64,000 nucleotides of DNA from Pseudomonas sp. ANT_H4 (lineage in GTDB: Bacteria > Pseudomonadota > Gammaproteobacteria > Pseudomonadales > Pseudomonadaceae): positions 310,001 to 374,000 of the forward strand of contig NZ_VOBG01000002.1 in NCBI RefSeq assembly GCF_008369295.1, given 5' to 3'. The position numbers were made by a program, and so were the translations under genes. Of the stretch, positions 31,314-40,469 are shown piece after piece (the stretch's first letter is position 1; the number at the start of each line of letters is the position of its first letter). Below the pieces are notes generated by a model, which was given only the letters and a program-made list of their open reading frames with translations, was not told the DNA's origin and did not search any database.

Positions 31314-32348
31314 TCAGCTGATTTTGTTGAGGTAGCCTGGCAGCGGCTGTTCCGGCAGCACCGACAACACCTTCAAGCGCTGCAACATCCGCTGTCGGGC
31401 CCGTTGCAGGTGCTCGCGCAGGTTTAGCGCGGCGGCGTCGAACGCGCCGTGCAGCAGTAGCTCCAGGATCAGCCGGTGCTCGGCCAGCATCGCCGGATCG
31501 GCGCCGATACCCAACAGGCTGTAGAAGATCCGGCTGATGATCATCGGGCTCTGGCCCTGGCGGATCAGCGCGGCGATCTTGCGGTTTTGCAGGCCCGCCA
31601 GGCAGTGCTGGTGCAGATCTTCTTCAAGTTGTTCGATTTCTTCCAGGCTGCAATGGTCGCTGTTTTGCGCATCGATCACCCGCTGCAGCATGGCCTCCAG
31701 CATCTCGCGAGCAAGGCCCGGCGCGCTCTGGCGCAAGGCTTCGGGTTCCAGGCAGGCCCGCAACTCGTAGTCTTCGGTGACCTCCCGGGCGGTCAGCGGC
31801 CCGGCCAGCCATTGGGAATAGGGTTCCTTTTCCACCAGGCCGCGGTCTCGTAGGCGCATCAGTGCTTCACGCACCACCGCGCGGCTGACACCGTAGTGTT
31901 CGGCCGCGGCTTGTTCATCGAGGCGGTAATGACCAAAGGCAATGCAGGTGGACAGAGCCGCACCGATCTCCTCGACGATTCGCTCGCCCAGGGGCCGGGT
32001 GTCCATCAGTTCGGCCTCACCGTTAAGGCCCAGGTGCGCATGGCTCAAGGGCAGGCGCAGTGGCTCCATGTCCAGGCCATCGGGGTTGATCAGGTAGCCA
32101 CGGCCATCGAAACGGCAGATCAGTCCTTCTTCATGCAGCAGGTCCAGGGCCTTGCGCACCGGGACGCGACTGGTGCCGAACAACTCGGCCAGCGGCGCTT
32201 CCAGCAGTACTAGGCCGTGGCGGGCGGTGCCGTTGACGATGGCGTCGCGCAATACCTGGTGGATCATCGCGTAACGGGAAGCCGAGGTTGACACTGCTTT
32301 CATCGGGTTCTCTGGAGCAAACGGGTCGGTGGCCTCGGATTCTCTCAT
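31314..32348 (-). CDS. GntR-type regulator with two winged-helix domains
   Basis: About 344 residues from the ATG at 32348; other starts are 32384 and 32303 (MKAVSTSASRYAMI, with AGAGAA before it). The first winged helix is SRYAMIHQVLRDAIVNG to RVPVRKALDLLHEEGL. The second begins GERIVEEIGAALSTCIAFG and includes GVSRAVVREALMRLRDRGL. A C-terminal FCD-like helical domain (YELRACLEPEALRQ onward) follows. A tandem DNA-binding arrangement is unusual for GntR proteins, which normally have one. It is divergent from the amidase operon and probably controls it through the paired 25-bp sites. Confidence 0.85.
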   Translation of the reverse strand: MRESEATDPFAPENPMKAVSTSASRYAMIHQVLRDAIVNGTARHGLVLLEAPLAELFGTSRVPVRKALDLLHEEGLICRFDGRGYLINPDGLDMEPLRLPLSHAHLGLNGEAELMDTRPLGERIVEEIGAALSTCIAFGHYRLDEQAAAEHYGVSRAVVREALMRLRDRGLVEKEPYSQWLAGPLTAREVTEDYELRACLEPEALRQSAPGLAREMLEAMLQRVIDAQNSDHCSLEEIEQLEEDLHQHCLAGLQNRKIAALIRQGQSPMIISRIFYSLLGIGADPAMLAEHRLILELLLHGAFDAAALNLREHLQRARQRMLQRLKVLSVLPEQPLPGYLNKIS

Positions 32349-32429
32349 AGATGTGCCTGTCACTCTGCGCCACGTCGGTGGCACTTTTTTGGGGCCTTGC
32401 AGGTAAGAATGTTACTTTTCTGCACCAAA

Positions 32430-32454
32430 ATGTACTTATTAATAAATAATACAT
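32430..32454. promoter_or_regulatory. Operator candidate A in the regulator-amidase intergenic region
   Basis: A 25-bp AT-rich pseudo-palindrome beginning ATGTAC and ending ATACAT, with TTATTAATAAATA between. It has the same length and end sequences as site B at 32608-32632. Confidence 0.55.
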
Positions 32455-32607
32455 TATTTGACTCTGGGGGTGTTTCCGCAGGCCTGTGGGATTTTTGTTG
32501 CGGGGTTAAACCCATCTATCCCGTATGTCTGGGAGATATTCCTGATTCCCCTGAAGCGCTGTGTATCTCCATGTGACTGAGATTGGCACGAAAGCTGCCT
32601 TTGTAAA

Positions 32608-32632
32608 ATGTATATTTTATTAATATGTACAT
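32608..32632. promoter_or_regulatory. Operator candidate B just before the amidase gene
   Basis: A 25-bp AT-rich pseudo-palindrome beginning ATGTAT and ending GTACAT, 18 bp before the amidase ATG. It matches site A in length and end sequence. Confidence 0.6.
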
Positions 32633-32650
32633 TTATAAAGGGTCCTTCCT

Positions 32651-33994
32651 ATGTCAGACGCCACTTCATTGGCCGAGGACTTCGCCAGCGGTCGCAGCGA
32701 CCCGGTGCAAGCCCTCGAACAGGCACTCGATCAGGCGAGCCAAGTCCCAGGTGTATTTATCTCGCTGACCCCGGAGCGCGCCCTGCGGGAAGCCCAAGCG
32801 TCGGCCGCCCGCTGGCGCGCTGGGCAGCCGTTGAGTGTGTTCGATGGCGTGCCGTTGGCCTGGAAGGACCTGTTCGATGTGGCAGGCAGCGTTACCACTG
32901 CCGGTGCTGCATTTCGTCGTGATGCACCCGAAGCCCTGCTCGATGCGCCAAGCGTGGGCCTGTTGTGCCGCGCTGGCATGATCAGCGTCGGCAAGACCAA
33001 TCTCAGTGAGCTGGCCTATTCCGGCCTGGGCCTGAACCCGCATTTCGGCACGCCCCACAACCCTCACGGCACCGATCAGCCACGCATTCCCGGTGGTTCG
33101 TCCTCAGGTTCCGCAGTGGCGGTGGCCGCCGGCATCGTGCCAATTGCCATGGGCACCGACACCGCCGGCTCGATCCGCATTCCCGCGGCCCTCAACGGCC
33201 TGGTGGGGTATCGCAGCAGTTGCCGGCGCTACAGCCGCGACGGTGTTTTTCCCCTGGCACATACCCTCGACAGCCTCGGCCCGTTGACCCGCAGCGTGCG
33301 TGATGCGCTGGTCATCGACGACGTGCTCAATGGTCGTGATAACCAGCAGCCGCGCAACGTACGCAGCATCAAAGGCCAACGCTTCTGGATAGAGCAAGGC
33401 GTGCTGGAGGATTCCGGGGTCGAACACAGCGTGCGTGAGAACCTTCAGCATTGTGTTGCGCAACTCCAAGCGAGCGGTGCGGTGCTGGACGTGCGTCCCT
33501 CAAAGACCTTTCAAACCACCCTTGAGCTGATCCAGCACCAAGGCTGGCTCGGCTCCTTTGAGGCCTTCGCCCTCCACGAAGCGCTGCTCGACAGCCCTGA
33601 CGCAGCTCAACTCGACCCCCGCGTGCGCCGTCGCCTTGAAGCTGCTCGCACGCTGCCGGCCAGTCAGTTGCTCGGCCTGTATGACGCTCGTCGCCGTCTG
33701 CAACAGCAACTGATCGACGAACTCGACGGCGCCATCCTCATCACCCCCACCGTGGCCCATGTCGCCCCGGCTCTGGCACCGCTGGAAGCCGACGATCAAC
33801 TGTTCGTCAGCACCAACCTTGCCACCCTGCGCCTGACTATGCCCGGCAGCCTGCTGGACATGCCCGGCGTGACCCTGCCCAGCGGCCGCGATGCACTGGG
33901 CCTGCCCACCGGCCTCTTGCTCAGCGCGCCCAGCGGCGAAGACGCACGCCTGCTCAGGGCTGCCCTGTCAGTCGAAACAGCACTCATTCTTTAA
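32651..33994 (+). CDS. Amidase (amidase-signature family), possible half-amidase
   Basis: A 447-residue amidase with the Ser-cisSer-Lys triad: Lys in PLAWKDLFD, and the serines in [16 protein letters not shown] and [16 protein letters not shown]. Such enzymes hydrolyse amides to acid plus ammonia. It is first in the operon and lies 11 bp from the imidase/deacetylase-like gene. The pairing suggests it opens the half-amide released from a cyclic imide, but amidase substrates cannot be read from sequence; allophanate- or indoleacetamide-type activity is an alternative. Cytosolic. Confidence 0.88.
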
Positions 33995-34005
33995 GGAGAC
34001 ACATC

Positions 34006-34884
34006 ATGGCTAAAGACATCCTCTGTGCATTTGGCGTCGACGTCGACGCGGTCGCCGGCTGGCTCGGTTCCTACGGCGGCGAAGATTCCCCGGACGACAT
34101 TTCCCGTGGCCTGTTCGCCGGTGAAATCGGCGCGCCGCGCCTGCTCAAGCTGTTCGAACGTTACGGCTTGCGCACCACCTGGTTTATCCCTGGCCACTCG
34201 ATGGAAACCTTCCCCGAGCAGATGAAAGCGGTAGCCGACGCCGGCCACGAAATTGGTGTGCACGGCTACAGCCACGAAAACCCCATCGCCATGACCGCCG
34301 AGCAGGAAGAAATCGTCCTCGACAAGTCCATTGAACTGATCACCCAGGTCACCGGCAAACGGCCCACCGGCTATGTCGCGCCGTGGTGGGAATTCAGCAA
34401 GGTGACCAATGAGTTGCTGCTGAAAAAGGGCATCAAGTACGACCACAGCCTGATGCACAACGACTTCCACCCGTACTACGTGCGCAAGGGCGACAGCTGG
34501 ACCAAGATCGATTACAGCCAGCACCCCGACACCTGGATGAAACCCTTGGTGCGTGGCGAAGAAACCGACCTGGTGGAGATCCCGGCCAACTGGTACCTCG
34601 ACGACCTGCCGCCAATGATGTTTATCAAAAAGGCCCCCAACAGCCACGGCTTCGTCAACCCGCGCCACCTGGAAGAGATGTGGCGCGACCAGTTCGACTG
34701 GGTCTACCGCGAACACGAACATGCGGTGTTCACCATGACCATCCACCCCGACGTTTCCGGCCGCCCACAAGTGCTGTTGATGCTGGAACGGTTGATCGAA
34801 CACATCCAGAGCCATGCCGGTGTGCGCTTCGTCACCTTCGACGAAATCGCCGATGACTTTATCCGCCGCCAACCCCGTACCTGA
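34006..34884 (+). CDS. Polysaccharide-deacetylase-fold hydrolase, cyclic-imidase-like
   Basis: A 292-residue NodB-fold protein without a signal peptide, so cytosolic. The catalytic aspartate lies in [16 protein letters not shown] and the His metal site in [13 protein letters not shown]; a late segment [13 protein letters not shown] completes the pocket. This form is close to PuuE-type ureidase/allantoinase enzymes and to the cyclic imide hydrolase described from Pseudomonas putida, rather than to wall deacetylases. Together with the neighbouring amidase this suggests ring opening of a cyclic imide. I infer this from recalled family similarity, not from an alignment. Confidence 0.72.
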
Positions 34885-34913
34885 CCCTTTGCCACCCCAT
34901 CGAGGCGCGATTC

Positions 34914-36254
34914 ATGTCTATCTACAACAAGCTTGATTTGACTGGCTGGAAACCCCGGCAACTGACGCCTAAGGAAGTGCGCTTCGCCACCTGGATCGCG
35001 TTTTTCGCCTGGGTATTTGCGGTGTACGACTTCATTCTGTTCGGCACCTTGCTTCCTGAGATTGGCCGGCATTTCGGCTGGGGTGAAGTGGAGCAGGCTG
35101 AAATCGCGACCTGGGTGGCGGTGGGCACCGCCGTCGTTGCACTGGCCATCGGCCCGCTGGTGGACAAACTGGGGCGGCGCACGGGGATTATCTTCACCGT
35201 CGCAGGTTCTGCCTTGTGCTCGGCGCTGACCGCCATCGGCGGCGCGTGGGGTAAGTCACCGTTGATCTTTATTCGCTCGTTGGGCGGCCTGGGGTATGCC
35301 GAGGAAACGGTCAACGCCACCTACCTGAGCGAGCTGTACGCCGCGTCGGATGATCCGAAACTGGCCAAGCGTCGTGGCTTTATCTATAGCCTGGTGCAGG
35401 GCGGCTGGCCGGTCGGCGCGCTGATCGCGGCGGGGTTGACTGCGTTGCTGCTGCCGGTCATTGGCTGGCAGGGCTGCTTCATCTTCGCGGCGGTCCCGGC
35501 CATCGTGATTGCGATCATGGCCCGCAAGCTCAAGGAGAGCCCGCAGTTCCAGATCCACCAGCGCATCACCCAACTGCGTAAAAGCGGCGCGGTGACTGAG
35601 GCGAAAAGCGTTGCCGTGACTTACGACGTCGACTACGACGAACACAGCAAGGCAGGCCTGAAAGCCGCGTTCCGTGGCCCGGCACGTCGTGCAACGTTGG
35701 TGATTGGCGCGGCGATCCTGCTCAACTGGGCGGCGATCCAGGTATTCAGTGTGCTCGGCACGTCAGTGATCGTCAGCGTGCACCACATCTCGTTTGAAAA
35801 CTCGCTGATCATTCTGGTGCTGTCGAACTTGGTGGGTTACTGCGGTTACCTGAGCCACGGCTGGATGGGCGACAAGATTGGTCGGCGCAATGTCATCGGC
35901 CTGGGCTGGATGCTCGGCGGGCTGGCGTTTGCCGGCATGCTGTATGGCCCGAGCAATATGCCGATGGTGGTTGGGCTGTATAGCCTGGGCCTGTTCTTTC
36001 TGATCGGGCCGTACTCGGCGGCGCTGTTTTTCATCAGTGAAAGCTTTCCCACCAGCATCCGCGCTACCGGTGGCGCGATCATCCATGCCATGGGGCCGAT
36101 TGGTGCTGTAGTCGCAGGTTTCGGTGCGACGCAGGTGTTGTCCGCCGGCGGTGACTGGCAGACCTCGGCCCTGTATTTCGGCGCGCTGCCGTGCTTTCTC
36201 TCTGGCGCGCTGATGTTTGCCGCGCGCCATGTGCGTCCGGAAACCGTTAAGTAA
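34914..36254 (+). CDS. MFS transporter of the catabolic cluster
   Basis: A 446-residue MFS protein with about 12 membrane helices. A sugar/acid-porter signature is present in LVDKLGRRTGI (loop 2-3) and SHGWMGDKIGRRN in the second half. It starts 29 bp after the imidase-like gene and ends 12 bp before the first SDR gene. It is presumably the uptake system for the cluster's substrate; a carboxylate or small amide fits, but this is inferred from context. Confidence 0.85.
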   Translation: MSIYNKLDLTGWKPRQLTPKEVRFATWIAFFAWVFAVYDFILFGTLLPEIGRHFGWGEVEQAEIATWVAVGTAVVALAIGPLVDKLGRRTGIIFTVAGSALCSALTAIGGAWGKSPLIFIRSLGGLGYAEETVNATYLSELYAASDDPKLAKRRGFIYSLVQGGWPVGALIAAGLTALLLPVIGWQGCFIFAAVPAIVIAIMARKLKESPQFQIHQRITQLRKSGAVTEAKSVAVTYDVDYDEHSKAGLKAAFRGPARRATLVIGAAILLNWAAIQVFSVLGTSVIVSVHHISFENSLIILVLSNLVGYCGYLSHGWMGDKIGRRNVIGLGWMLGGLAFAGMLYGPSNMPMVVGLYSLGLFFLIGPYSAALFFISESFPTSIRATGGAIIHAMGPIGAVVAGFGATQVLSAGGDWQTSALYFGALPCFLSGALMFAARHVRPETVK

Positions 36255-36266
36255 GGAGTCAGTTAG

Positions 36267-37028
36267 ATGCTTCGTAAAGTTGCCTTGATTACCGGTGCCG
36301 CCAGCGGCATCGGCCAGGCCCTCGCGTTGGCCTATGCCCGCAGCGGCGTAGTAGTGGTTGGCGGGTATTACCCGGCCGACCCCCATGACCCGCGCGAAAC
36401 TGTAGCCCTGGTGGAAGACGCCGGTGGCGAATGCCTGATGCTGGCGCTGGACGTGGGCGATACCGCCTCCGTCGATGCCCTGGCCGAGCAAGCCATCCAG
36501 CACTTCGGCCGCCTTGACTACGCCGTCGCCAACGCCGGCCTGCTGCGCCGCGCGCCGCTGCTGGAGATGACCGACGAGCTGTGGAACGAAATGCTCAATG
36601 TTGACCTGACGGGGGTGATGCGTACCTTCCGCGCGGCGACAAGGCATATGCACGAGGGCGGGGCGTTGGTGGCGATCTCCTCGATTGCCGGTGGTGTGTA
36701 TGGCTGGCAGGAGCATTCCCATTACGCGGCGGCCAAGGCTGGGGTGCCGGGGTTGTGCCGTTCGCTGGCGGTGGAGCTGGCACCGTTGGGGATTCGCTGC
36801 AATGCGGTGATTCCGGGGTTGATCGAGACGCCGCAGTCGCTGGACGCGAAGAACTCCCTGGGACCGGAAGGTCTGGCGAAAGCGGCGCGGGCGATTCCAT
36901 TGGGCCGGGTAGGGCGGGCGGATGAAGTCGCGTCACTGGTGCGGTTCTTGACCAGCGAGGAATCGAGTTACCTGACCGGGCAGAGCATTGTGATTGATGG
37001 TGGGCTGACGGTGCGCTGGCCGGATTAA
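36267..37028 (+). CDS. Short-chain dehydrogenase/reductase (first of two)
   Basis: A 253-residue classical SDR: the cofactor motif [12 protein letters not shown] (residues 8-19), the NAG strand VANAGLLRR, the catalytic Ser in AISSIAGG and YAAAKAG holding the Tyr and Lys. NADP preference is not clear. It ends with the common tail [12 protein letters not shown]. It oxidises or reduces an alcohol or ketone in the pathway. A family-3 repeat separates it from the second SDR gene. Confidence 0.88.
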
Positions 37029-37055
37029 TACATTACCTATTTGTAGGCGATGGGG

Positions 37056-37109
37056 CTGTTGTGGCAAGCGGGCTTACTGTGGCGATCCGACAAGCCCGCT
37101 CGTCACAGG
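37056..37109. repeat. Short REP pair, family 3, between the two SDR genes
   Basis: GTGGCAAGCGGGCTT then inverted AAGCCCGCTCGTCAC, about 15 bp between. It lies inside the operon. Confidence 0.7.
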
Positions 37110-37155
37110 GAATGCAATCAGCCATAGATTTAGTGTGACTAACCAGGAGTTCAAA

Positions 37156-37905
37156 ATGCCCCAACTGCATAACCGCCGCGCCGTGATTACCGGCGCTGCC
37201 AGCGGCATCGGTGCCGCCATCGCCCGCGCCTACGCTATTGAAGGCGCACGTCTGCTGCTGGCCGACCGCGACGGCTCACGGCTGGCAGAAACCGCCCGAA
37301 CTTGCCGCGACCTGGGCGCCGAAGTCTTCGAGTGCGTGGCCGACGTAGGCACTGTCGAAGGTGCCCAGGCCAGCGTCGATGCCTGCGTCACCCACCTGGG
37401 CGGCATCGATATCCTGGTCAACAACGCCGGCATGCTGACCCAGGCCCGCTGCGTCGACCTGAGCATAGACATGTGGAACGACATGCTGCGTGTCGACCTC
37501 ACCAGCGTCTTCGTCGCCAGCCAGCGCGCCTTGCCGCACATGCTCGCCCAGCGTTGGGGGCGGATCATCAATGTTGCCTCGCAACTGGGCATCAAGGGCG
37601 GCGCCGAGCTGACCCATTACGCGGCGGCCAAGGCAGGTGTGATTGGCTTCACCAAGTCCCTGGCCCTGGAAGTGGCCAAGGACAACGTGCTGGTCAATGC
37701 TATTGCCCCTGGCCCGATTGAAACGCCCTTGGTCGGTGGCATCAGCGACACCTGGAAACGCGCCAAGGCCGCCGAGTTGCCCCTGGGCCGTTTTGGTCTC
37801 GCGGACGAAGTGGCACCCACCGCCGTGCTGCTCGCCAGCGAGCCCGGTGGCAACCTATTTGTCGGCCAGACCCTGGGCCCGAACTCCGGCGACGTCATGC
37901 CATGA
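37156..37905 (+). CDS. Short-chain dehydrogenase/reductase (second of two)
   Basis: A 249-residue classical SDR with [12 protein letters not shown] (nucleotide site), VNNAGMLTQ, NVASQLGIKGGAE and [11 protein letters not shown] (catalytic Tyr and Lys). The ATG at 37156 has AGGAG 7 bp upstream; the frame is open to 37135, which I do not use. It resembles FabG-type or sugar/polyol dehydrogenases; the pathway role is inferred from the neighbours. Confidence 0.88.
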   Translation: MPQLHNRRAVITGAASGIGAAIARAYAIEGARLLLADRDGSRLAETARTCRDLGAEVFECVADVGTVEGAQASVDACVTHLGGIDILVNNAGMLTQARCVDLSIDMWNDMLRVDLTSVFVASQRALPHMLAQRWGRIINVASQLGIKGGAELTHYAAAKAGVIGFTKSLALEVAKDNVLVNAIAPGPIETPLVGGISDTWKRAKAAELPLGRFGLADEVAPTAVLLASEPGGNLFVGQTLGPNSGDVMP

Positions 37906-37918
37906 GCGAGCAATAACC

Positions 37919-38221
37919 ATGTGCGGACTCTGCGGACTGCTGGGTGAAGACCTGCACTGGAGCGATCCCCTGGGCGATGAGCTGCCTCGTCGTCGCGAAC
38001 GTTTGCGCCGGATCGCTGCGATCAATCAGGTGCTGGCGGTGTTTCGGCTCAAGGTCGAAGACTTCCAAGGTGCGTCCTACCTGCTGCTGGGCGCCACTGG
38101 AAAACAGGAACTGGCCAGCGGCCTGGATCAATTGTGGCGGGCGGCAGAAACCATGCTCGGCCGACCGCTGGACCCCCTCGACCCGCGCCTGCTAGACCAC
38201 CTGGAGCAACAGGACGCCTAG
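37919..38221 (+). CDS. Small MCGLCG protein of unknown function
   Basis: A 100-residue protein starting MCGLCGLLGEDLHWSD. The Met-Cys-Gly-x-Cys-Gly start recalls the N-terminal cysteine of class-II glutamine amidotransferases, but no other amidotransferase motif follows and the protein is too short. I do not recognise a domain; CxxC near the N-terminus could bind metal. It is placed 13 bp after the second SDR and ahead of the CobW GTPase. Its TAG stop lies in the left end of a REPIN. Confidence 0.7.
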   Translation: MCGLCGLLGEDLHWSDPLGDELPRRRERLRRIAAINQVLAVFRLKVEDFQGASYLLLGATGKQELASGLDQLWRAAETMLGRPLDPLDPRLLDHLEQQDA

Positions 38222-38312
38222 TTCTTGCTCACGAAAAACTCAAAGGCCCCGCGTTTACTCAGACAGTACGCGTCATCGTTAACGACCATCGCGAGCAAGC
38301 TCGCTCTACAGG
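38217..38312. repeat. REPIN, family 1 variant, inside the operon
   Basis: Left end GCCTAGTTCTTGCTCACGAA (degraded); right end GCGAGCAAGCTCGCTCTACAG. It separates the MCGLCG gene from the CobW gene and supplies the stop codon of the former. Confidence 0.8.
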
Positions 38313-38319
38313 TGAACCT

Positions 38320-39300
38320 ATGAGTATCGCCCTCAACGTCATCACCGGCTTTCTCGGCAGCGGCAAGACCACCTTGCTCAAACGCCTGCTGCAAGGCGAA
38401 AGCCTGGGCGACACGGCGTTGCTGATCAATGAGTTCGGTGACGTCGGAATCGACCATCTGCTTGTGGAGGAAGTGGCGCCAGACACGGTGTTGCTGCCCA
38501 GCGGTTGCGTCTGCTGCTCCATTCGTGGCGAGTTGAAAGACGCCCTGCTCGGGTTGTTGCAACGCCGCGAGCGCGGTGAGATCCCAGCCTTCAAACGGGT
38601 GATTCTGGAAACCACCGGCCTGGCTGACCCGGCGCCGATCCTCGCCACCTTGAACAACGACGTGCAACTGCGCGGGCGCTTTCATATTGGTCTGGTGGTG
38701 ACGTTGGTGGATGCCAGGCACGCCGCGTTGCAAGAGCGCCTGCACCCGGAATGGTTGGCGCAGGTGGCGGCGGCGGATCGCTTGTTGTTGAGCAAGACCG
38801 ATCTTGTCGACGACTGTGATCAGTTGCGCAAACACTTGCAGGCCCTGAATGCAGGCACGCCGATCCTTAACACCCATGAGGTCGACAGCGGCGATCAACT
38901 GCTGCTCGGTGAAGGGTTGCGCAGTTCGACACCCGCATTGGAAGTCAGCCGCTGGAAGCTGCATCAGGCCTCATCGACACCTTCGACCCATGGCGCGGCG
39001 CAAGTCTGCTGCCTGACCTTAGACCAGCCACTGGACTGGGTCGGCTTCGGGGTCTGGTTATCGATGCTGTTAAGATGCCACGGCGAACGTATTCTTCGCG
39101 TCAAAGGACTGCTCAACGTGAACGCAAGCTTGGCCCCTATCGTCATTCATGGCGTGCAGCATTGCCTGCATGCCCCGGTCCACTTGCCCGAGTGGCCGGG
39201 TACGGATCGCCAATCGCGCCTGGTGTTTATCTTGCGCGGCCTCGATCCGGCATTGTTGCGCCGCTCCTTTGAAGTCTTCTCTCGACGGTTCGCCGCATGA
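38320..39300 (+). CDS. CobW/P47K-family (COG0523) GTPase
   Basis: A 326-residue metallochaperone-type GTPase. Walker A GFLGSGKTTLL, the Zn-binding motif GCVCCS with adjacent Glu residues, ILETTGLADP and the G4-type SKTD are present; the C-terminal CobW domain follows (about 220-325). COG0523 members insert or deliver metal ions. Its stop overlaps the next start by 4 bp. A metal-dependent enzyme in the same operon (imidase fold, amide hydrolysis) is a plausible client, but this is inference. Confidence 0.88.
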   Translation: MSIALNVITGFLGSGKTTLLKRLLQGESLGDTALLINEFGDVGIDHLLVEEVAPDTVLLPSGCVCCSIRGELKDALLGLLQRRERGEIPAFKRVILETTGLADPAPILATLNNDVQLRGRFHIGLVVTLVDARHAALQERLHPEWLAQVAAADRLLLSKTDLVDDCDQLRKHLQALNAGTPILNTHEVDSGDQLLLGEGLRSSTPALEVSRWKLHQASSTPSTHGAAQVCCLTLDQPLDWVGFGVWLSMLLRCHGERILRVKGLLNVNASLAPIVIHGVQHCLHAPVHLPEWPGTDRQSRLVFILRGLDPALLRRSFEVFSRRFAA

Positions 39301-40469
39301 TTACTTTACGTGTCCTCGGCACTTCGGTGACTTTGCTTGAAGCCTTGCGTGTACGCGCCGAACAGGATCTGGGCATTCGCCTGGTCTACCAGGTGCACGA
39401 CGTCGAACAGGCCCAGCGCATCGCCGTGATGCAGCCCGACAGCTACGACCTGTACGACCAGTGGTTTCACAACGTCGACTTCGTCTGGCCGGCGCGGGCG
39501 ATCCAGCCCATCGATACCCGACGTATCGCCCTGTGGCATGAAATCAACGACCTGCCCAAGCGCGGTCGGTTGTCGGCCGGCGACCGCCTCGGCAGCGGCA
39601 GCGTGCCCAGCGAGCGCTTGTTTGTACAGCACGACGGCAGCCTTGGCAGCACCGTTACCGAACGCATCAGCATGCTGCCCCTGACCCACAACGTCGACAG
39701 TTTTGCTTATCGCCCTGAGCGTCTGCCCGAGGGTTTTAGCCGTGCCAATGAAAGTTGGGGCTGGCTGCTCGACCCGGCCTGGAGTGCCCGCGCCGCGCTG
39801 CAAAGTGATGCTGCCATTGGCGCTCTGGATGCTGCGCTGGCGGTGCAGGGTGCTGGCCTTGCGAGCTTCAAGGACATCGGCAACATGAGCATCGAAGAGA
39901 TCGATGTGCTGGCCGATATCCTGGTGCGCAAACAGAAGGAAGGCCACTTCGCCGCTTTCTGGTCCGATGATGAAGAAGCGGCGCAATTGATGCTCAGCCC
40001 CAGCATCGATATCCAGAGTCTGTGGTCACCCACTTTGATGCGCCTGCATCGGGCCGGGGTCAAATACCGTCTCGCGGTACCCAAGGAAGGCTATCGCGCC
40101 TGGTTTGGCGGCCTGTCCCTGTCGCGCCATGCCAAGGGGCCGGTGCTGGACGCCGCCTACGCCTATCTCAACTGGTGGCTCTGCGGTTGGCCCGGCGCGG
40201 TGATGGCTCGCCAGGGTTATTACATCGGTAACCCGGCTCGCAGTCGCGACCACTTGAGCAGCGCTGAATGGGACTACTGGTACGCAGGCCTGCCGGCCCG
40301 CGAGGAACTGCTGGGCAGCGATGGTTTGCCGCTGATCGACATCGGTGAAGTGCGCGATGGAGGCTCCTACGAGCAGCGCATGGGGCATATCGCGGTGTGG
40401 AACTCGGTGATGGATGAACACAACTACCTGGTGCGGCGCTGGGGCGATTTCATGCGGGCACGGATGTAA
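39297..40469 (+). CDS. PotD-like solute-binding-fold protein lacking a signal peptide
   Basis: A 390-residue protein of the ABC polyamine/organic substrate-binding fold. It begins MITLRVLGTSVTLLEALRVR, which is where the mature part of related periplasmic proteins begins, and no hydrophobic leader precedes it; the start overlaps the CobW stop (ATGA). Other segments are DSYDLYDQWFHNVDFVW and WWLCGWPGAVMARQGYY. No membrane or ATPase partner is encoded nearby. It may be a cytosolic binding protein or enzyme-associated factor. Family call is firm, function is not. Confidence 0.78.
   Translation: MITLRVLGTSVTLLEALRVRAEQDLGIRLVYQVHDVEQAQRIAVMQPDSYDLYDQWFHNVDFVWPARAIQPIDTRRIALWHEINDLPKRGRLSAGDRLGSGSVPSERLFVQHDGSLGSTVTERISMLPLTHNVDSFAYRPERLPEGFSRANESWGWLLDPAWSARAALQSDAAIGALDAALAVQGAGLASFKDIGNMSIEEIDVLADILVRKQKEGHFAAFWSDDEEAAQLMLSPSIDIQSLWSPTLMRLHRAGVKYRLAVPKEGYRAWFGGLSLSRHAKGPVLDAAYAYLNWWLCGWPGAVMARQGYYIGNPARSRDHLSSAEWDYWYAGLPAREELLGSDGLPLIDIGEVRDGGSYEQRMGHIAVWNSVMDEHNYLVRRWGDFMRARM

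What the first reader, a model, noticed from the sequence alone, without database searches (positions are those of the whole stretch)
32349..40469. Possible cyclic-imide (or related amide) catabolic operon with divergent regulator
An amidase, a NodB-fold protein close to cyclic imide hydrolases, an MFS carrier, two SDRs, a CobW-type GTPase and a solute-binding-fold protein are in one transcription unit. Imidase plus half-amidase is the known order of steps in cyclic imide degradation. The two SDRs, the CxxC protein and the metal chaperone are not explained by that pathway and may define a new variant.
Basis: partly seen in the sequence, partly recalled or inferred. Interest (0 to 1): 0.7.

Follow-up and report, generated by a model that had tools for sequence, protein, structure and literature searches.

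The report
Cyclic-imide breakdown operon with metallochaperone
A Pseudomonas carries a gene set that most likely turns a small ring-shaped nitrogen compound into a cyclic imide and then into an organic acid plus ammonia, helped by a probable metal-delivery protein pair that nearly always sits next to the ring-opening enzyme.

Summary
Window 31314-40469 holds a divergent GntR regulator and eight co-directional genes: amidase, NodB-fold hydrolase, MFS carrier, two SDRs, CxxC protein, COG0523/CobW GTPase and a PotD-fold protein without visible signal peptide. At the thresholds used, all nine occur in 61 of 80 related loci. The NodB-fold protein is 77% identical to H. pylori HP0310/"PgdA", the closest structure of A. 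nidulans HxnM, a cyclic imide hydrolase (PMC9304392). It is not PuuE, which the genome encodes elsewhere.

In the fungal Hxn pathway an SDR makes the imide that imidase and amidase then open. The CxxC protein (no Pfam family) occurs in 44 of the 45 Pseudomonas genomes with NodB (199 searched) and in exactly the 10 of 398 Pseudomonadota genomes with close NodB, always nearby; this suggests a dedicated metallochaperone pair. The PotD-like protein is a leaderless paralogue of the exported binding protein of ABC-type clusters. A 23-bp palindrome occurs genome-wide only at the two divergent promoters. Substrate, metal transfer and transcription are untested. New variant of a known kind.

The parts
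31314..32384 (-). GntR-type regulator with two GntR winged-helix stretches and an FCD domain; start perhaps the internal ATG at 32348
   Evidence: Pfam GntR (2 stretches) and FCD; divergent neighbour in many loci
32431..32453 (.). palindromic operator-like site TGTA-N15-TACA upstream of the regulator
32609..32631 (.). second palindromic operator-like site TGTA-N15-TACA, 19 bp before the amidase start
   Evidence: only these two places in the 6.13-Mb genome with 2 mismatches allowed
32651..33994 (+). amidase-signature amidase, proposed half-amidase (KDLF, GGSSSG and TDTAGS motifs present)
   Evidence: NF004766 over cut-off; motifs
34006..34884 (+). NodB-fold hydrolase, proposed cyclic imide hydrolase
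   Evidence: 77.0% identical to HpPgdA/3qbu; D12, D14, H86, H90, H247 conserved
34914..36254 (+). MFS carrier, proposed importer
   Evidence: MFS_1; best NCBIfam match aromatic acid/H+ symport subfamily, below cut-off
36267..37028 (+). SDR 1, proposed dehydrogenase of the upper pathway
   Evidence: adh_short_C2; TGAASGIG and YAAAK present
37156..37905 (+). SDR 2, proposed dehydrogenase of the upper pathway
   Evidence: adh_short; TGAASGIG and YAAAK present
37919..38221 (+). CxxC protein (MCxxCG N-terminus), no Pfam family, proposed partner of the GTPase
   Evidence: Cys2 and Cys5 invariant in 33 aligned homologues; co-occurrence with NodB
38320..39300 (+). COG0523/CobW-type GTPase with CVCC motif, proposed metallochaperone
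   Evidence: cobW and CobW_C; CVCC
39297..40469 (+). PotD/PotF-fold protein without visible signal peptide, proposed cytoplasmic ligand-binding protein
   Evidence: AlphaFold model pLDDT 91.9, Foldseek to PotD E 1.6e-16; N-terminus by eye

Best explanation
The operon is a regulated pathway for a small cyclic amide. The MFS carrier imports the ring compound. One or both SDRs oxidise a ring hydroxyl (hemiaminal) to give a cyclic imide. The NodB-fold, metal-dependent hydrolase opens the imide to a half-amide. The amidase releases ammonia and leaves a C4 or C5 dicarboxylate, possibly hydroxylated, for central metabolism. The CxxC protein and the COG0523 GTPase load the metal (probably zinc) into the hydrolase. 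The leaderless PotD-fold protein binds the substrate or an intermediate in the cytoplasm. The tandem-domain GntR protein represses both divergent promoters through the 23-bp palindromes. Shown by computation: gene content, conservation, family placement, conserved active-site residues, co-occurrence, predicted fold and operator uniqueness. Inferred: every reaction, the metal transfer, the binding role and the direction of regulation.
For: NodB: nearest solved relative 3qbu at E 1.8e-161, PuuE-type structures at 3.6e-17 and 1.8e-15; 77.0% identity, all ten checked HpPgdA active-site and gate residues kept. HxnM is 64.2% identical to P. putida cyclic imide hydrolase homolog AAY98498 and its closest structure is 3qbu; HxnW (SDR) makes 3-hydroxypiperidine-2,6-dione, HxnM opens it, HxnN (amidase) follows (PMC9304392; passages and section 12 seen). 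True PuuE is elsewhere in the genome, 546.3 bits against cut-off 424.6; the window protein scores 88.1. Amide-hydrolysing neighbours vary: an amidase in 67 of 80 loci; an asparaginase in Rhodococcus L088, Thioclava L096 and L068; hydantoinase A/B genes in L071, L072, L077. NCS1 carriers (cytosine/uracil/allantoin permease family) in L061, L062, L064, L070, L081, L087. Rhodococcus keeps NodB-MFS-SDR1-SDR2 collinear and adds an OYE, the HxnT family. CxxC: 44 of 199 Pseudomonas genomes, all among the 45 with NodB; exactly the 10 of 398 Pseudomonadota genomes with close NodB. Operator: only two places in the genome, reversed-pattern control 0.
Against: No enzyme, growth or transcript data. The nearest solved relative is named a peptidoglycan deacetylase; PMC3688963 reports HP0310 activity on chitin, acetylated xylan and pNP-acetate, PMC3084791 says mutant work indirectly supports the deacetylase role, and PMC6957412 cites larger acetylation in the deletion mutant. 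The amidase is missing from three loci that keep the rest (L012, L028, L047). No amidase, SDR1 or SDR2 hit at E<=1e-3 in L067, L073, L075, L117, L118. Rhodococcus L088 has NodB with no CxxC, GTPase or PotD-like hit in its 20.9-kb stretch, so these are not strictly required. I did not hold the P. putida CIH, HxnM or HxnW sequences, so membership rests on HpPgdA and published identities. H. pylori HP0309 is annotated as an N-carbamoyl-D-amino acid amidohydrolase, which would fit a hydantoin route as well. OYE is collinear only in Rhodococcus; in L051 and L114 it lies beside a divergent LysR gene.
Confidence: 0.66

Rival explanations
1. The NodB-fold protein is a cell-wall or polysaccharide deacetylase (HpPgdA-like) and the neighbours are incidental or serve envelope metabolism.
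For: Nearest solved relative is HpPgdA; HP0310 activity on chitin and acetylated xylan in PMC3688963; H. pylori mutant phenotypes cited in PMC3084791 and PMC6957412.
Against: No signal peptide visible by eye, and PMC3084791 reports none for close homologues; gate residues Y23, W127, W128, W196 that block HpPgdA's site are conserved; HP0310 was inactive on GlcNAc, chitotriose, acetylated polyamines and acetylated dipeptides in PMC3084791; conserved neighbours are amide and redox enzymes and small-molecule carriers.
Confidence: 0.1
2. The pathway handles hydantoins, ureides or dihydropyrimidines, the NodB protein acting as a hydantoinase or allantoinase-like enzyme; the SDRs act on side chains.
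For: NCS1 carriers and HyuA/HyuB or PxpBC genes near NodB in other genomes; a NodB homologue beside a hydantoinase-type gene on a plasmid of Paenarthrobacter YJN-5, listed as an iprodione degrader in PMC9869045; H. pylori HP0309, next in locus-tag order to HP0310, is annotated N-carbamoyl-D-amino acid amidohydrolase, the usual partner of a hydantoinase (recalled).
Against: True PuuE present elsewhere; HpPgdA did not act on allantoin; the family scans show no carbamoylase in this operon; amidase and asparaginase partners fit a half-amide better than a carbamoyl acid.
Confidence: 0.17
3. The order of steps differs: the cyclic imide itself is imported and opened, and the two SDRs act downstream on a hydroxy-dicarboxylate or half-amide.
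For: L067, L073 and L118 keep ABC permease genes next to NodB-CxxC-GTPase with no SDR hit; a gene annotated tartrate dehydrogenase lies beside an asparaginase in Mesorhizobium L089.
Against: The HxnW precedent places the SDR before the imidase; the SDR pair, MFS and NodB travel together also in Rhodococcus.
Confidence: 0.2
4. The CxxC protein and GTPase maintain some other metalloprotein or act as a stress element unrelated to the hydrolase.
For: COG0523 GTPases serve diverse clients (PMC2770081, passages seen); Rhodococcus L088 lacks them beside NodB.
Against: CxxC co-occurs exactly with the close NodB clade in 398 Pseudomonadota genomes and is the next gene in four of the six genera concerned; both stay beside NodB where amidase and SDRs are not found.
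Confidence: 0.3

Closest known systems
Aspergillus nidulans Hxn lower pathway (HxnT, HxnW, HxnM, HxnN; PMC9304392)
   Same: An SDR, then a cyclic imide hydrolase whose closest structure is the same HpPgdA, then an amidase, with transporters; an OYE also present in the Rhodococcus version
   Different: Fungal genes lie in three clusters together with the nicotinate-hydroxylating steps; no CxxC protein, GTPase or PotD-fold protein in the parts I saw; substrate in Pseudomonas unknown
Bacterial imidase/half-amidase route of cyclic imide degradation (recalled; P. putida CIH homolog AAY98498 is named in PMC9304392)
   Same: Imidase of this family plus amidase
   Different: Two SDRs, a likely metallochaperone pair, a leaderless binding protein and an operator are added
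Helicobacter pylori HP0310 (HpPgdA) locus
   Same: Enzyme 77.0% identical; by locus tag HP0309 is an annotated amidohydrolase, HP0311 hypothetical and HP0312 a COG0523 protein (PMC3866246 table passage, PMC2770081 passage)
   Different: Locus DNA and HP0311 sequence not seen; published as a wall deacetylase; SDRs or a PotD-fold protein there not examined
PuuE allantoinase
   Same: NodB fold, small cyclic amide substrate
   Different: 27% identity to this genome's PuuE, in which D14 and H90 are replaced; window protein far below the PuuE cut-off

Membership tests
Cyclic imide hydrolase (P. putida CIH / HxnM / HpPgdA family) | Sequence in the HpPgdA clade rather than with PuuE or wall deacetylases | tested here: met
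   77.0% identity to HpPgdA; the split that holds both with 37 other leaves apart from the rest has support 0.942. CIH, HxnM and wall deacetylases were not in the tree; wall deacetylases score far lower
Cyclic imide hydrolase (P. putida CIH / HxnM / HpPgdA family) | Mononuclear metal site D14, H86, H90 with D12 and H247 | tested here: met
   Conserved in the window protein; residues from PMC3084791
Cyclic imide hydrolase (P. putida CIH / HxnM / HpPgdA family) | Hydrolysis of a cyclic imide | not testable with these tools
   Needs an enzyme assay
PuuE allantoinase | Score above TIGR03212 cut-off 424.6 | tested here: not met
   88.1 bits; the genome's other homologue scores 546.3
Secreted peptidoglycan/chitin deacetylase | Export signal | tested here: not met
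   N-terminus [15 protein letters not shown] shows none, judged by eye, no predictor run
Secreted peptidoglycan/chitin deacetylase | Open groove for a polymer | tested here: inconclusive
   Residues that block the site in HpPgdA are conserved; the window protein was not modelled
Amidase signature family | Lys-cisSer-Ser motifs | tested here: met
   Pfam Amidase 251.1 bits; KDLF, GGSSSG, TDTAGS; meaning of the motifs recalled
COG0523 GTPase | CXCC motif and CobW_C domain | tested here: met
   CVCC at residue 63, CobW_C 74.5 bits; motif definition in PMC2770081
PotD-type periplasmic binding protein | PotD fold | tested here: met
   Foldseek E 1.6e-16, TMt 0.80 on a predicted model
PotD-type periplasmic binding protein | Export signal | tested here: not met
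   Starts MITLRVLGTSVTLLE; paralogues in other clusters carry RRSLLK-type leaders, judged by eye
Hxn nicotinate pathway | Substrate 3-hydroxyglutarimide derived from nicotinate | not testable with these tools
   No metabolite data; upstream Hxn genes were not searched for in this genome

The most novel reading that the evidence does not exclude
The CxxC family and its COG0523 GTPase are a dedicated metal-insertion pair for NodB-fold cyclic imide hydrolases. A binding protein of the importer was duplicated and kept in the cytoplasm as an intermediate-holding partner. H. pylori HP0309-HP0312 is a reduced form of the same module, so the wall deacetylase PgdA would by descent be an imide hydrolase that needs its own chaperone.
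Probability: 0.35. Interest if true: 0.82.

Novelty: new variant of a known kind. Interest (0 to 1): 0.62.

Why it matters
PMC9304392 states that several Hxn steps have no prokaryotic equivalent; this operon is a candidate bacterial counterpart with SDR, imidase and amidase in one unit. It gives a COG0523 GTPase a specific likely client and a new partner family. It also gives a concrete reason to retest H. pylori PgdA, an enzyme linked to immune evasion whose true substrate PMC3084791 left open.

Tried and rejected
Substrate from flanking genes in Pseudomonas: the window neighbours (Lon protease, GGDEF/EAL gene, PQQ-type dehydrogenase) recur only in Pseudomonas loci and say nothing about substrate.

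OYE as a constant partner: hits in 7 of 96 scanned loci by tblastn at E<=1e-15, but collinear only in Rhodococcus. In L051 and L114 it lies beside a divergent LysR gene; in L087 no ORF of 150 aa or more covers the hit on that strand. I keep it only as a parallel in Rhodococcus.

CxxC as a short form of a class II amidotransferase (MCGxxG start): considered from memory only; no Pfam match, N-terminus disordered in the model. Fold search gave no match with E at or below 0.001, and VIA-align at best Z 5.2: inconclusive.

H. pylori neighbourhood: viral contigs searched with the HpPgdA sequence, no relative found; it rests on passages of two papers. A viral-contig scan with the NodB alignment gave two distant partial hits, not followed.

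Papers on the operon itself: searches listed none that describes it; only listings were seen for most of these papers, and the library omits most subscription journals, including (recalled) the original imidase and half-amidase work.

Corrections made on checking: a notebook entry says 44 of 55 regions carry the palindrome; the count is 43 of 55. One search printed a clade support of 0.757 that re-rooting had misplaced; the split support is 0.942. Because the HP0309 annotation also fits a hydantoin route and mutant data speak for the deacetylase, I moved the hydantoin rival from 0.14 to 0.17, the deacetylase rival from 0.08 to 0.10 and the best explanation from 0.68 to 0.66.
Full report
What is there. 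Between window positions 31314 and 40469 lie a divergent GntR-type regulator and eight co-directional genes: amidase, NodB-fold hydrolase, MFS carrier, SDR1, SDR2, a 100-residue CxxC protein, a COG0523/CobW GTPase and a PotD-type protein. The gaps are 11, 29, 12, 127, 13, 98 and -4 bp. The genome is a 6.13-Mb assembly in 89 contigs; the closest loci are Pseudomonas, mostly of the P. fluorescens group (grouping recalled).

Conservation. NodB-CxxC-GTPase is present in 77 of 80; the other three contigs end shortly after the start of SDR1. At the identity thresholds used, all nine genes occur in 61 of 80. The operon order also holds in Pantoea, Halomonas L082, Paraburkholderia, Delftia and Acinetobacter, with the regulator downstream in the last three, and on Klebsiella plasmids. 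Three loci lack the amidase (L012, L028, L047). In alphaproteobacteria, and in one record labelled Roseateles (L095), the set is rearranged and the MFS is replaced by a PotABCD-type importer (L084, L086, L095, L096, L114) or an NCS1 permease (L070, L081, L087). Three of four Halomonas loci have both MFS and NCS1.

The NodB-fold enzyme. Its best solved relative by sequence is H. pylori HP0310 (3qbu, E 1.8e-161), with PuuE far behind. Aligned identity to HpPgdA is 77.0%; metal ligands D14, H86, H90, the water-holding D12 and H247, and the gate residues Y23, W127, W128, W196 and L201 are all kept (residue roles from PMC3084791, sections 8 and 11 read). In a FastTree analysis of 54 sequences HpPgdA, the window protein, Rhodococcus and the rhizobial proteins form one group of 39 leaves, split support 0.942. 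The genome's real PuuE lies on another contig and scores 546.3 bits for TIGR03212 (cut-off 424.6), while the window protein scores 88.1.

What this family does. PMC9304392 (abstract, passages and section 12 seen) shows in A. nidulans that the SDR HxnW makes 3-hydroxypiperidine-2,6-dione, proposes that HxnM opens it, and assigns removal of the amide nitrogen to the amidase HxnN. HxnM is 64.2% identical to the P. putida cyclic imide hydrolase homolog AAY98498, and its closest structure is 3qbu. So an SDR in front of an imidase has a precedent. PMC3084791 (passages and sections 8, 9, 11 read) found HpPgdA inactive on GlcNAc, chitotriose, acetylated polyamines, acetylated dipeptides and allantoin, and argued for a small substrate; it also noted polyamine importers near homologues, which fits the PotABCD-type clusters here. 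Against this, PMC3688963 (passages) reports activity of HP0310 on pNP-acetate, acetylated xylan and chitin, and mutant data for a role in peptidoglycan acetylation are cited in PMC3084791 and PMC6957412.

The amide step. The partner that would hydrolyse the half-amide differs between lineages: an amidase-signature enzyme in 67 of 80 loci; an asparaginase in Rhodococcus L088, Thioclava L096 and L068, and one nearby in Mesorhizobium L089; hydantoinase A/B genes between GTPase and PotD-like gene in L071, L072 and L077. Use of different families for like chemistry supports the assigned step; five loci show no such partner by similarity to the window amidase. Rhodococcus keeps NodB-MFS-SDR1-SDR2 in order (49-74% identity) and adds an OYE-family reductase, as in the Hxn pathway, but shows no CxxC, GTPase or PotD-like hit.

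The CxxC protein and GTPase. Met1, Cys2, Cys5, Gly6, W14, R25, N36, T60, G61 and D85 are invariant in 33 homologues. No Pfam family matches the window protein, and the predicted structure (pLDDT 81.8, N-terminus disordered) has no fold match with E at or below 0.001. In 199 Pseudomonas genomes NodB (E<=1e-60) occurs in 45 and CxxC in 44 of those same genomes, on the same contig about 3 to 4 kb away; the odd one, G128, has a divergent NodB. In 398 Pseudomonadota genomes CxxC occurs in 10, exactly those whose NodB scores E<=5.6e-136, on the same contig and strand within 4 kb; eight genomes with more distant NodB lack it. Five of the ten are the window's own genus, so the count by genus is 6 of 212. 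CxxC and GTPase stay beside NodB in L075, L117 and L118, where no amidase or SDR hit is found. The GTPase has the CVCC motif that COG0523 members share (PMC2770081). The simplest reading is a metal-loading pair for the hydrolase; metal transfer itself is inference.

The PotD-like protein. Its model (pLDDT 91.9) matches PotD (E 1.6e-16, TMt 0.80). It has no visible leader, whereas rhizobial clusters carry both an exported form with an RRSLLK-type leader next to ABC genes and the leaderless form after the GTPase. The leaderless proteins form one clade when rooted on the L067/L073 proteins and share many invariant residues with the exported ones. It occurs in 45 of 199 Pseudomonas genomes: the 44 with CxxC (in G079 it is read in two pieces) plus G163, where a divergent copy lies beside ABC genes and a distant NodB. 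A cytoplasmic binding role is inference.

Regulation. TGTA-N15-TACA palindromes lie at 32431-32453 and 32609-32631. A degenerate 23-bp pattern drawn from these sites and their homologues, with up to two mismatches, hits only these two places in the genome, and the reversed control hits none. Of 55 regulator-amidase intergenic regions 43 carry at least one and 6 carry two; shuffled regions average 0.37 (maximum 3 in 200 rounds), and among spacings 8-24 spacing 15 gives 43, the next highest, 14, gives 8. The pattern was chosen after seeing the window, and the regions are related, so this is not 43 independent events.

H. pylori. HP0309 is annotated N-carbamoyl-D-amino acid amidohydrolase, HP0311 hypothetical and HP0312 ATP-binding protein (PMC3866246, table passage), and HP0312 is listed as a COG0523 member (PMC2770081, passage). 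I did not see the HP0311 sequence or the locus DNA. If HP0311 belongs to the CxxC family, H. pylori carries a reduced version of this module; the HP0309 annotation would also fit a hydantoin route.

Verdict. The class of pathway (cyclic imide catabolism) is likely; the substrate is not known. The distinctive parts, a dedicated metallochaperone pair and a leaderless binding protein, are supported by co-occurrence but not by experiment.

Noticed in passing
window 37029-37155 and 38222-38319: The two longest gaps inside the operon hold repeat-like intergenic sequence by eye (for example tcgcgagcaagctcgctc); gap lengths differ between Pseudomonas loci.
   Followed up: no
L083 (Klebsiella pneumoniae plasmid NZ_CP147633.1): The complete nine-gene set, with 88% identical NodB, lies on a mobilizable plasmid with IS26 and IS903B elements within the 25-kb stretch.
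   Followed up: no
L087 19426-22288 and L090 9282-12210: A second arrangement: urea carboxylase-associated protein, NodB homologue and amidase next to PotABCD-type genes, without adjacent CxxC or GTPase.
   Followed up: partly
L075 1489-5127: Bradyrhizobium NodB-CxxC-GTPase lies downstream of a molybdenum hydroxylase gene set, an enzyme type that can hydroxylate N-heterocycles.
   Followed up: partly
L051, L071, L072, L077, L084, L085, L086, L095: Carboxyltransferase-domain genes of the PxpB/PxpC type lie near the NodB clusters.
   Followed up: partly
L012, L028, L047: Operons that keep NodB and the rest but have no amidase hit.
   Followed up: partly
L094 (Paenarthrobacter sp. YJN-5 plasmid): A 37% identical NodB homologue near a hydantoinase-type gene and a cytosine permease in a strain listed as an iprodione degrader.
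   Followed up: partly
L123 8947-10095: One Pseudomonas genome (G163) has a divergent PotD-like homologue with ABC genes and a distant NodB but no CxxC hit.
   Followed up: partly
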